Source of the DNA: an uncultured Pelagibacteraceae bacterium
GTDB taxonomy: Bacteria; Pseudomonadota; Alphaproteobacteria; Pelagibacterales; Pelagibacteraceae
Assembly (NCBI GenBank): GCA_902595125.1
Contig: CACJOY010000007.1
Span: 1-35,980, forward strand
DNA length: 35,980 nt
Direction of reading: 5' to 3'
Shown here: positions 27,154 to 30,856 of the stretch, piece after piece
Numbering within the stretch: position 1 is the first letter of the stretch
Layout: the number at the start of each line of letters is the position of its first letter
Position numbers and translations under genes: made by a program
Notes under the pieces: generated by a model
Told to the model about the DNA's origin: nothing
The model's input: the letters and a program-made list of their open reading frames with translations, nothing else
Database searches by the model: none

Positions 27154-28044
27154 ATGAATTTTGGGACGTCAAGAGCTTCGGCTATCGAAAATCTTAATAG
27201 ATTTGTAGACCAAAATTTGTTTGAATATTCTAAGTTAAGAAATTTTGATTATGGTCCCGACAATAGATCAAATATTTCGTGCCTTTCACCTTATATTACT
27301 CATGGAGTTATATCGGAATTAGAAGTAATCAAGAAATCATTAAGCAAATTTTCATTCTCTAAAAATGAAAAATTTATTCAAGAAGTTTTATGGCGAACAT
27401 ATTGGAAGGGTTGGTTAGAATTAAGACCTAATGCTTGGACTGATTATTTAAATGAATTAAAAAAAATTCGTGAAGAATTTAAAAACAATCAAAACTATAG
27501 AAATGCTATTGAGGGTAACACAAACATCGAGTGTTTTAATGAATGGATAAAAGAATTAAAAGAAACTAATTATTTACACAATCACGCAAGGATGTGGTTT
27601 GCAAGTATCTGGATTTTTACTTTAGATTTGCCTTGGCAACTGGGTGCAGAGATTTTTATGAAACATCTTTATGATGGAGATGCCGCATCCAATACTTTAG
27701 GATGGAGATGGGTTGCCGGAATTCAAACACAAGGAAAAAATTATCTGGCTAGTGAATGGAACATTAAAAAATTTACCAACAACAGATTTAGTAATATCAA
27801 ACTTAATGAAAATGCTCCTCCAAAAACAAGCGATAAGACTTATGCTGCATCAAAATTAGAGTTTAACAGTCCACAAAATCTTGAAGAAAAAAATCTTCTT
27901 ATTTTTGAGAATAATCTGTCTTTTGAAATAAGTGATTTTAAAGATCAAAAATTTAAAAAGGTTTTTTTAATTTCCAATAAAAATGAAAACCGAACCATAG
28001 AGCTCAGTGAAAAAATTGGTAAAATTCAAGTCTCAATTAATTGA
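27154..28044 (+). CDS. photolyase/cryptochrome-type FAD-binding protein, frame broken near its C-terminus
   Basis: The 296 residues contain a photolyase FAD domain without the usual N-terminal antenna domain. NRSNISCLSPYITHGVIS (38-55), EVLWRTYWKGW (77-87), NHARMW (143-148), DGDAASN (174-180) and GWRW (183-186) follow the family order. After about residue 240 comes an alpha/beta-like region (LLIFENNLSFE, KKVFLISN) resembling the start of a photolyase antenna domain, but placed after the FAD domain. The frame ends at 28044. Removing one A from the A6 run at 28010-28015 joins it to 28045-28297 as one 380-residue protein. It lies 5 bases after psiE. DNA repair or light sensing is plausible but untested. 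Confidence 0.85.
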   Translation: MNFGTSRASAIENLNRFVDQNLFEYSKLRNFDYGPDNRSNISCLSPYITHGVISELEVIKKSLSKFSFSKNEKFIQEVLWRTYWKGWLELRPNAWTDYLNELKKIREEFKNNQNYRNAIEGNTNIECFNEWIKELKETNYLHNHARMWFASIWIFTLDLPWQLGAEIFMKHLYDGDAASNTLGWRWVAGIQTQGKNYLASEWNIKKFTNNRFSNIKLNENAPPKTSDKTYAASKLEFNSPQNLEEKNLLIFENNLSFEISDFKDQKFKKVFLISNKNENRTIELSEKIGKIQVSIN

Positions 28045-28297
28045 AGATCAAAAAAAGAGATTGGAAGAAAAATCAATCAATACTGAAATTATAGATTTAA
28101 GTGAGATACAGAATATTAATGAAACTTCTTATGGTTTATATCCTACAGTTGGTGAAAACCTAGATTTTATAAATACAAATAATTTAAAAATAGAATTTCT
28201 GTATAGAAAATTAGACCAATTTTCTTGGCAATATTGTAATAAAGGTTTTTTTAATTTTAAAAATTATATTCCAAAAATAATTACAACTTTTAATTAA
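28007..28297 (+). pseudogene. out-of-frame C-terminal remainder of the photolyase-type gene
   Basis: This frame gives 96 residues from a GTG at 28007 and overlaps the end of the FAD-domain gene by 38 bases. It reads as a continuation: KLVKFKSQLIEDQKKRLEEK follows on from LSE in the first frame if one A is dropped at 28010-28015, giving a long helix, a TEIIDLSEI strand and a YPTVGENLDFI segment. It has no Shine-Dalgarno or independent family identity, so I treat it as the separated tail of the same gene. The break may be a sequencing error, a real mutation or a slippage site. Confidence 0.7.
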
Positions 28298-29237: not shown

Positions 29238-29366
29238 TTAGCTTAGCTTAGAACACTTCTTAGAACAATATTTTACTCTATCCCAATTTAGTTTCCATTT
29301 CTTTCGCCAAACAAAAGGTCTTTTGCAAATTGGACAAGTTTTGGATGGTAAATTTTCTTTTCTCAT
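29238..29366 (-). CDS. DUF2256 zinc-ribbon-like protein (42 aa)
   Basis: A short gene read from the DNA: ATG at 29364-29366, TAA at 29238-29240, 42 residues with CPICKRPFVWRKKW and VKYCSKKCSK. Four cysteines (11, 14, 34, 39) form a probable zinc site. This matches the DUF2256 family, small proteins that often sit beside, or are fused to, photolyase/cryptochrome genes. Its ATG overlaps the TGA of the photolyase-related gene by one base (TGATG), indicating coupled translation. Function is unknown; a role with the photolyase is inferred from linkage. Confidence 0.88.
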   Translation of the reverse strand: MRKENLPSKTCPICKRPFVWRKKWKLNWDRVKYCSKKCSKLS

Positions 29367-30856
29367 CAAATTGTATTTTGTTTAATAAATTGATCAGCTT
29401 CCGATAAAATCAATTTTTTTCTATCCGTTTTCATTTTATCAAAAATTCTTACCATCATTGATAGTCTAGGATTGGTTAAAAAAAATTTTCTGTTTCGATC
29501 TATAAATCTCCAATAAAGACCATCCATTGTATTACACCACTCTCCTTTTTTAAAATCCATCATTTTCATAAAATAAGCAGATCCACAGATATAAGGCTTG
29601 GTTGCAAATATTCCACCATCACTGAATAATCCCATGCCATAAACATTTGGTACCATTACCCAGTCAGAAGAGTCTACAAACATTTCCATAAACCATTTGT
29701 AAACTATAATTGGTTTAATCTCACAAAGGTTCATGATGTTAGATAAAATCATTAGTCTTTCAATGTGATGAGACCAGCCGTGGTTTAATGCATTCTTGAT
29801 TGCATAATCTAATGGCGGCAAACCTGTCGTTCCATCATACCAAGACTTTTTCATTTTTCTATTTTGTTTAAAAAAATTTTTTGTTTCCATTTGCTCTGAA
29901 TAACTTTGATAAATACCTCGCATAAACTCTCTCCAACCAATTATCTGACGGATATAACCTTCCAAGGAGTTCATTCTTATTTTATTTTTTTTATGAAAAT
30001 CTAAAACTTTTTGAATAATAAACTCAGGAGTTATTAAACCTAAATTGATATAAGGGCTTAAAGCACTATGAAATAAAATGTTGTCTTTTTGATTTACTGC
30101 GTCCTCATAATCACCAAACAAATTTGATTTTTCTTTTATAAAAAAATTTAGTAATTTAACCACGTCATCAAATTCTGTTGCCAACCAAAAATTATCTGTA
30201 CTACCTGGATGATCTTTAAATAATTTTTCTACGATAGGCTTTAATTTTTTTGTATGATTAGTTTCATTAATTTTAGGAAATTTTGGTATTGAAATATTTT
30301 TTGGTAATTTATTTCTATTGTCCTCATCAAAGCTCCATTTTCCGCCGATTGGATTTCCATCAGCTCCCATCAATATTCCTGATTTTTTTCGAACCTCTTT
30401 GTAAAACGTTGCCATAAAGGGTTTTTTTGATTTTCCTAGATAATTTTTGAATTCACTTCTTGAATTTAAAAACATAGGAGTTTGAACAACATTCCAATTA
30501 ATTTTTTCTTTTTTTAAGAATTGAGAAATTTTTTTTTCAAAAAACTTATCTTCAATTTCAAAACTAGAAATCTCTTTAATTTTTTTTGAATTAATAATCT
30601 TTTTTAATTTTTTAAGATAATCGTCCTTAAATTCTTTATCTTCAATTTTTGTATACTCTAATTTAAATTTATTCTTTTTGAGTTTGTCTGCATAAGATCG
30701 CATAGAAGACAAGAATAATAGTATTTTCTGTTTATGATGTTTTTCATAAGTACATAAACCATTGTCTTCTGCCATAAAGAATATATGGTCTTTTTTGAAG
30801 CGGTCGAGGTATTTTGATGGAAATAATTGATTACCAAGTATAAAAAATAACTTCAT
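29366..30856 (-). CDS. deoxyribodipyrimidine photolyase-related protein (DPRP/PhrB-type)
   Basis: A 496-residue flavoprotein of the prokaryotic (6-4) photolyase/cryptochrome group. It has the DPRP N-domain (LFFILGNQLFP, MAEDNGLCTYEKHHKQK), then an FAD-binding region with FWLATEFDD, the SPYINLGLITP segment, REFMRGIY, the active-site pair H363/H364 in GWSHHIERLMI, and FSDGGIFATKPY. Relatives such as Agrobacterium PhrB bind a 4Fe-4S cluster through four cysteines. Here the loop after KPY lacks the expected C-x-x-C, and P349 stands where I place the first ligand; remaining cysteines are 35, 378, 424 and 441. Cluster loss is an inference from memory of the family. Divergent from the SDR gene by only 27 bases. 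Confidence 0.9.
   Translation of the reverse strand: MKLFFILGNQLFPSKYLDRFKKDHIFFMAEDNGLCTYEKHHKQKILLFLSSMRSYADKLKKNKFKLEYTKIEDKEFKDDYLKKLKKIINSKKIKEISSFEIEDKFFEKKISQFLKKEKINWNVVQTPMFLNSRSEFKNYLGKSKKPFMATFYKEVRKKSGILMGADGNPIGGKWSFDEDNRNKLPKNISIPKFPKINETNHTKKLKPIVEKLFKDHPGSTDNFWLATEFDDVVKLLNFFIKEKSNLFGDYEDAVNQKDNILFHSALSPYINLGLITPEFIIQKVLDFHKKNKIRMNSLEGYIRQIIGWREFMRGIYQSYSEQMETKNFFKQNRKMKKSWYDGTTGLPPLDYAIKNALNHGWSHHIERLMILSNIMNLCEIKPIIVYKWFMEMFVDSSDWVMVPNVYGMGLFSDGGIFATKPYICGSAYFMKMMDFKKGEWCNTMDGLYWRFIDRNRKFFLTNPRLSMMVRIFDKMKTDRKKLILSEADQFIKQNTI

What the first reader, a model, noticed from the sequence alone, without database searches (positions are those of the whole stretch)
27154..28297. 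Photolyase-type protein with a possible C-terminal antenna-like domain (domain permutation)
The FAD domain begins near the N-terminus with no antenna domain before it. After residue 245 come LLIFENNLSFE, a KKVFLISN strand and, after frame repair, a long helix and a TEIIDLSEI strand. That order resembles the first elements of a photolyase antenna domain (LxWFRxDLRxxD, VxPVFIxD), but located after the FAD domain. If right, this is a circularly permuted photolyase-family protein.
Basis: inference. Interest (0 to 1): 0.72.

Follow-up and report, generated by a model that had tools for sequence, protein, structure and literature searches.

The report
Photolyase with reversed domain order
This likely SAR11 ocean-bacterium gene, broken by a frameshift in this assembly, belongs to a family of photolyase-type (predicted light-driven DNA-repair) proteins whose second domain, predicted to fold like the "antenna" domain that usually comes first, sits at the back instead; that reversed order is already described (the NewPHL class), and some relatives keep a predicted antenna-like domain as a separate gene next door.

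Summary

The reversed order is not new: text in print describes "NewPHLs or SPLs" with "inverted domain topology". This gene fits: alphaproteobacterial family, Trp dyad instead of triad, conserved catalytic residues. In its order, 136 of 197 genomes searched carry the C-domain.

What may be new: all 8 FAD-only "short photolyase-like" (SPL) genes seen among 289 alphaproteobacterial genomes are followed at once by a small gene resembling a photolyase antenna domain. In Deinococcus and others the two are fused, FAD first; in one such protein Pfam's antenna model passes its cut-off at the C-terminus. So SPLs probably do not lack that domain; it is encoded behind them, split or fused.

The parts
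27154..27822 (+). FAD (catalytic) domain, residues 1-223
27823..27888 (+). linker, residues 224-245
   Evidence: loop in the model of the intact relative
27889..28044 (+). first part of the C-terminal antenna-like domain (strands 1 and 2), read in the first frame up to the frame break
   Evidence: C-domain profile A3 matches 27793-28077, E 3.7e-17
28007..28044 (+). overlap of the two reading frames; the frame changes somewhere here
   Evidence: ORFs 27154-28044 and 28007-28297; intact copies exist in relatives
28007..28297 (+). rest of the C-terminal antenna-like domain (long helix, strands 3-5, end motif WQYCNKGFFNFKNYIPKI) in the second frame, with stop
   Evidence: A3 matches 27947-28294, E 3.6e-31

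Best explanation
The gene is a frame-broken copy of a photolyase-family gene whose FAD domain comes first and whose C-terminal domain is predicted to fold like the antenna domain that normally comes first, so it is likely a member of the NewPHL class. It most likely works as other photolyases do: reduced FAD, re-reduced through a two-tryptophan chain (W184, W161), absorbs blue light and passes an electron to a pyrimidine dimer held by E77, W80, N143, M147, N180 and W186, probably in single-stranded DNA as reported for NewPHLs. The C-terminal domain likely packs on the FAD domain from the other end of the chain, closing the FAD pocket and perhaps holding a light-harvesting chromophore. Shown here: domain order, family conservation, conserved residues, and the neighbouring-gene arrangement in relatives. 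Predicted: the folds. Inferred: FAD binding, repair activity, substrate, chromophore, packing, and that the order arose by fusion of adjacent FAD and antenna genes.
Confidence: 0.85

Rival explanations
1. The C-terminal domain is a generic Rossmann-like or universal-stress-like domain recruited independently, not the photolyase antenna domain.
Against: Photolyase-superfamily chains hold ranks 1-10 and 30 of 50 rows (19 of them one enzyme), most aligned over 127-140 of 146 residues, helices after strand 5 included, against 94-126 for the others. Profile comparison with the antenna-like proteins, which themselves match photolyase N-domains (prob 98), gives prob 78. In P0305 and P0360 the window-family profile runs on from the FAD domain into the antenna-like part, and in P0355 it covers that part too.
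Confidence: 0.1
2. The protein is a light sensor (cryptochrome-like) that no longer repairs DNA.
For: The third Trp of the triad is absent (0 of 107); R342 of the E. coli enzyme is His in 107 of 107; the genome has two other photolyase-family genes.
Against: Residues known (recalled) for dimer binding and catalysis are conserved in 107 of 107 (E274, W277, N341, M345, N378) and 105 of 107 (W384); [quoted passage not shown]
Confidence: 0.1
3. The 296-residue first frame is the real product and the second frame is not used, as in short photolyase-like proteins.
For: The window's first frame ends at 28044, and some relatives (SPL) are FAD-domain only.
Against: 134 of 136 genomes of the order with this C-domain have it in an unbroken frame; the second frame is conserved (E 3.6e-31); the break leaves half of the C-domain.
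Confidence: 0.03

Closest known systems
NewPHL photolyases (Emmerich et al. 2020, NAR; paper not held, known from passages in PMC13274461, PMC8948257, PMC12083526 and recall)
   Same: Inverted domain order; the four named examples (D. shibae, M. mesophilicum, E. litoralis, R. centenum) are alphaproteobacteria (D. shibae: the others recalled), the class in which the family here was found; Trp dyad; conserved flavin-site Asn.
   Different: Here from SAR11-type genomes, about 380 residues; named members could not be aligned; repair not tested.
Short photolyase-like proteins, SPL (Xu et al. 2021; paper not held, known from passages in PMC9178010, PMC9498864, PMC9649867)
   Same: FAD domain without an N-terminal alpha/beta domain; separated from class I together with the window family on the unrooted FAD tree.
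   Different: SPL are described as lacking the alpha/beta domain; the window family has one at the C-terminus, and the SPL genes seen here have an antenna-like one in the next gene or fused behind.
Class I CPD photolyase (E. coli, 1dnp)
   Same: FAD domain and catalytic residues.
   Different: Antenna domain in front, Trp triad (recalled), 471 residues.
Prokaryotic (6-4) photolyases and related bacterial cryptochromes (8ijy, 3zxs, 4dja)
   Same: Their N-terminal domain is the best structural match of the C-domain.
   Different: Order antenna-FAD; a gene of the related DPRP type (29366-30856) lies nearby in this window.

Membership tests
NewPHL | Catalytic FAD domain N-terminal, second domain C-terminal | tested here: met
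NewPHL | Trp dyad rather than triad (reported for D. shibae NewPHL, PMC8948257 passage) | tested here: met
   W359 and W382 equivalents in 107 of 107; no W in the W306 column in 107, and W in the surrounding stretch in 4 of 107
NewPHL | Asn at the flavin switch position (PMC12083526 passage) | tested here: met
   N180, equivalent to E. coli N378, in 107 of 107; that N378 is the same position as the N395 of the passage is recalled
NewPHL | Sequence clade with the named members A8LJA9, M7YZC8, Q2N8F4, B6IPR5 | tested here: inconclusive
NewPHL | Light-dependent repair of CPD in single-stranded DNA | not testable with these tools
   Needs protein; active-site residues are conserved
SPL | No N-terminal alpha/beta domain | tested here: met
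SPL | Short protein without any alpha/beta domain | tested here: not met
   C-terminal alpha/beta domain in the model and in the aligned family
PF00875 DNA photolyase antenna domain | Curated profile score for the window family's C-domain | tested here: not met
   0 of 10 members at E <= 10
PF00875 DNA photolyase antenna domain | Same fold | tested here: met
PF00875 DNA photolyase antenna domain | Curated profile score for the standalone and fused SPL-type antenna-like proteins | tested here: met
   Met by some only. Standalone: 0 of the 8 of the SPL loci pass, 3 of 8 weak; of 3 homologues picked because the database flagged PF00875, 2 pass 26.6 bits (P0135 26.7, P0142 27.0). Fused: of 4 picked the same way 1 passes (P0253 26.9; P0319 26.4, P0322 24.8, P0359 24.3); of 3 further, 2 weak, 1 none; of 10 further, 4 weak, 6 none
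Class I CPD photolyase | N-terminal antenna domain | tested here: not met
   Protein begins with the FAD domain
Circularly permuted photolyase in the strict sense | Same interface between the two domains as in a photolyase | not testable with these tools
   No model coordinates were available for superposition

The most novel reading that the evidence does not exclude
Short photolyase-like proteins are not antenna-less ancestors of photolyases: they are one half of two-gene photolyases whose antenna domain is made by the next gene, and the inverted photolyases of SAR11, other alphaproteobacteria, Deinococcus and Bacteroidota are fusions of that gene pair in operon order. The photolyase lobes were thus once separate proteins that met in trans and were joined more than once, in both orders.
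Probability: 0.5. Interest if true: 0.68.

Novelty: new member of a known kind. Interest (0 to 1): 0.45.

Why it matters
Inverted photolyases are described but few papers held here mention them (4 hits for 'NewPHL', one of them off topic). Finding one in most SAR11-type genomes searched (136 of 197 of the order) would make it a very common photolyase gene of the sunlit ocean (SAR11 abundance recalled). The by-product matters more: short photolyase-like proteins have been proposed as ancestors of the photolyase/cryptochrome family and are described as lacking the alpha/beta domain (passages). If that domain is the next gene, the argument changes, and a split photolyase would give a direct test of what the antenna lobe contributes, by adding or leaving out the second protein.

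Tried and rejected
Rejected or set aside: (1) The order of matches of the family profile on class I photolyases (C-domain columns on residues 8-126 of L033) as evidence of inversion: domain E-values 1.1, 13, 78 and 140. (2) Filing the C-domain under PF00875 by its profile: not met. (3) A first profile comparison held one junk row (an upstream stretch of L024) among the photolyase N-domains; redone without it, 26 rows, 25 after thinning. (4) A first tree used the wrong ORF for L029; corrected. Rows were thinned before the tree: 8 Pelagibacteraceae rows kept, and about every fourth of P0244-P0361. (5) Of 12 weak hits of the antenna-like profile in 289 genomes, 10 lie in ORFs with a photolyase FAD domain behind; of the other two, one (G213) reads as a photolyase by eye and one (G071, 222 aa) was not identified. 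The 9 hits in the order lie in frames of 486-506 aa that I did not check further. (6) Phage records: 10 matches to an SPL protein, 57-64% coverage, 26.6-31.5% identity; not followed. (7) Outside the class: a phylum survey of 299 genomes gave matches covering the C-domain in the same class only, one row (447) running to profile column 265 apart. (8) Literature, search listings, passages: none of what I saw describes a separate antenna gene beside SPL; the two primary papers (Emmerich 2020; Xu 2021) are not held, so this absence is weak.

Full report
What is there. The window carries ORF 27154-28044 (296 aa) and, in another frame, ORF 28007-28297 (96 aa). The gene thus belongs to a family that is intact elsewhere and is broken here by a frame change. 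In the order, 136 of 197 genomes searched carry the C-domain (125 of 149 that are at least 90% complete and at most 5% contaminated); only the window's genome and G727 show it in a broken frame.

A known class. [quoted passage not shown] 2020 (passages of PMC13274461). It lists NewPHLs of Dinoroseobacter shibae, Methylobacterium mesophilicum, Erythrobacter litoralis and Rhodospirillum centenum. Another paper says that D. shibae NewPHL has 'a mere Trp dyad' (passage of PMC8948257), which is what the window family shows. A protein of Ruegeria sp. TM1040, in the same bacterial family as D. shibae, matches the family profile over its whole length with 486 bits. I therefore file the gene as a likely NewPHL. 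The best PDB sequence match to the intact relative was 58 bits, so no solved close relative is in that copy.

The separate antenna-like gene. Among 289 alphaproteobacterial genomes, 21 carry the C-domain (strong hits, all in frames with the FAD domain, counting the window's broken one) and 8 others carry the FAD-only SPL genes L025-L032. The two sets do not overlap. In all 8 SPL loci the next gene on the same strand is a small protein of about 131-153 residues that starts like a photolyase antenna domain; 7 overlap the SPL gene by 1-8 bases and one starts 14 bases behind (the start in L030 is uncertain). A profile of these 8 proteins finds, besides themselves (E < 1e-50), no other strong hit in the 289 genomes, and then 12 weak places (2e-6 to 0.008), 10 of them in ORFs that also hold a photolyase FAD domain further on. 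In the order it finds 9 places (E <= 1e-6) in frames of 486-506 aa, the length of photolyases; these were not checked. Profile comparison with 25 photolyase N-domains gives prob 98 over 141 columns. Pfam's antenna model passes its cut-off in 2 of 3 standalone homologues picked because the database flagged them (P0135, P0142), and in 0 of the 8 themselves, 3 of which match weakly.

Fused SPL-antenna proteins. On plasmids, three Deinococcus records carry SPL and antenna-like domain in one protein (456, 472 and 457 residues) and a fourth, Deinococcus sp. QL22, carries them as two genes overlapping by 4 bases. The antenna-like profile hits the C-terminus of the three at E 1e-24 to 1e-27, the separate QL22 gene at 3e-18, and a 404-aa Persicobacter (Bacteroidota) frame at 1.3e-4 overall, best single piece only 0.1. 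The 122 proteins P0242-P0363 were found or chosen through that part, and all match the profile; 121 also have the family's FAD match. The antenna-like part lies behind the FAD match in 118; in the other 3 (P0305, P0355, P0360) the family profile itself reaches into it; in none does it lie in front. In P0253 Pfam's antenna model passes its cut-off at residues 286-383, behind PF03441 at 87-204; in the 3 other flagged proteins it stays just under (24.3-26.4 bits) and in the unflagged ones it is weak or absent.

Link to the window family. The window family's C-domain against the enlarged antenna-like set gives prob 78 and score 37.4 over 99 columns, with 60 shuffles at most 16.6 (with the smaller sets prob 16 and 39). 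On the FAD-domain tree of 98 rows the window family (100/100), all SPL together (96/93) and class I (100/100) are each one side of a branch, and split and fused SPL are mixed, needing 4 changes between split and fused, the window family counted as fused. Persicobacter and QL22 are long branches, so their places are unsure.

How it likely works and arose. Inferred: a FAD photolyase that repairs pyrimidine dimers, with the C-terminal lobe closing the FAD site as the antenna lobe may do from the front in other photolyases. The order FAD-antenna in both the gene pairs and the fusions makes gene fusion the simplest route; the tree is unrooted, so fission of a fused ancestor is not excluded, and the starred branches alone do not force more than one change for the split or the fused label.

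Noticed in passing
L025-L032, directly behind each SPL gene: A separate small gene for a photolyase antenna-like domain follows all 8 of the 8 SPL genes seen.
   Followed up: yes
P0278-P0281 (688-709 aa): FAD domain, antenna-like domain and a uracil-DNA glycosylase (PF03167) in one predicted protein, in 4 listed proteins; P0278 was scanned.
   Followed up: partly
window 29366-30856 (-): A DPRP (PF04244) photolyase-type gene lies about 1.1 kb behind, on the other strand; such a gene is also within the flanks of 43 of 80 Pelagibacteraceae loci.
   Followed up: partly
G000 contig 4, 38498-39886 (-): The same genome has a photolyase with PF00875 in front of PF03441, so at least three photolyase-family genes.
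   Followed up: no
G727 contig 40, 28683-29187: A second genome of the order with this gene in a broken frame.
   Followed up: no
L200 versus L196, L197, L199: Deinococcus plasmids hold both split and fused forms of the same gene pair.
   Followed up: yes
residue 144 of P0001: E. coli Arg342 is His in 107 of 107 members of this family.
   Followed up: no
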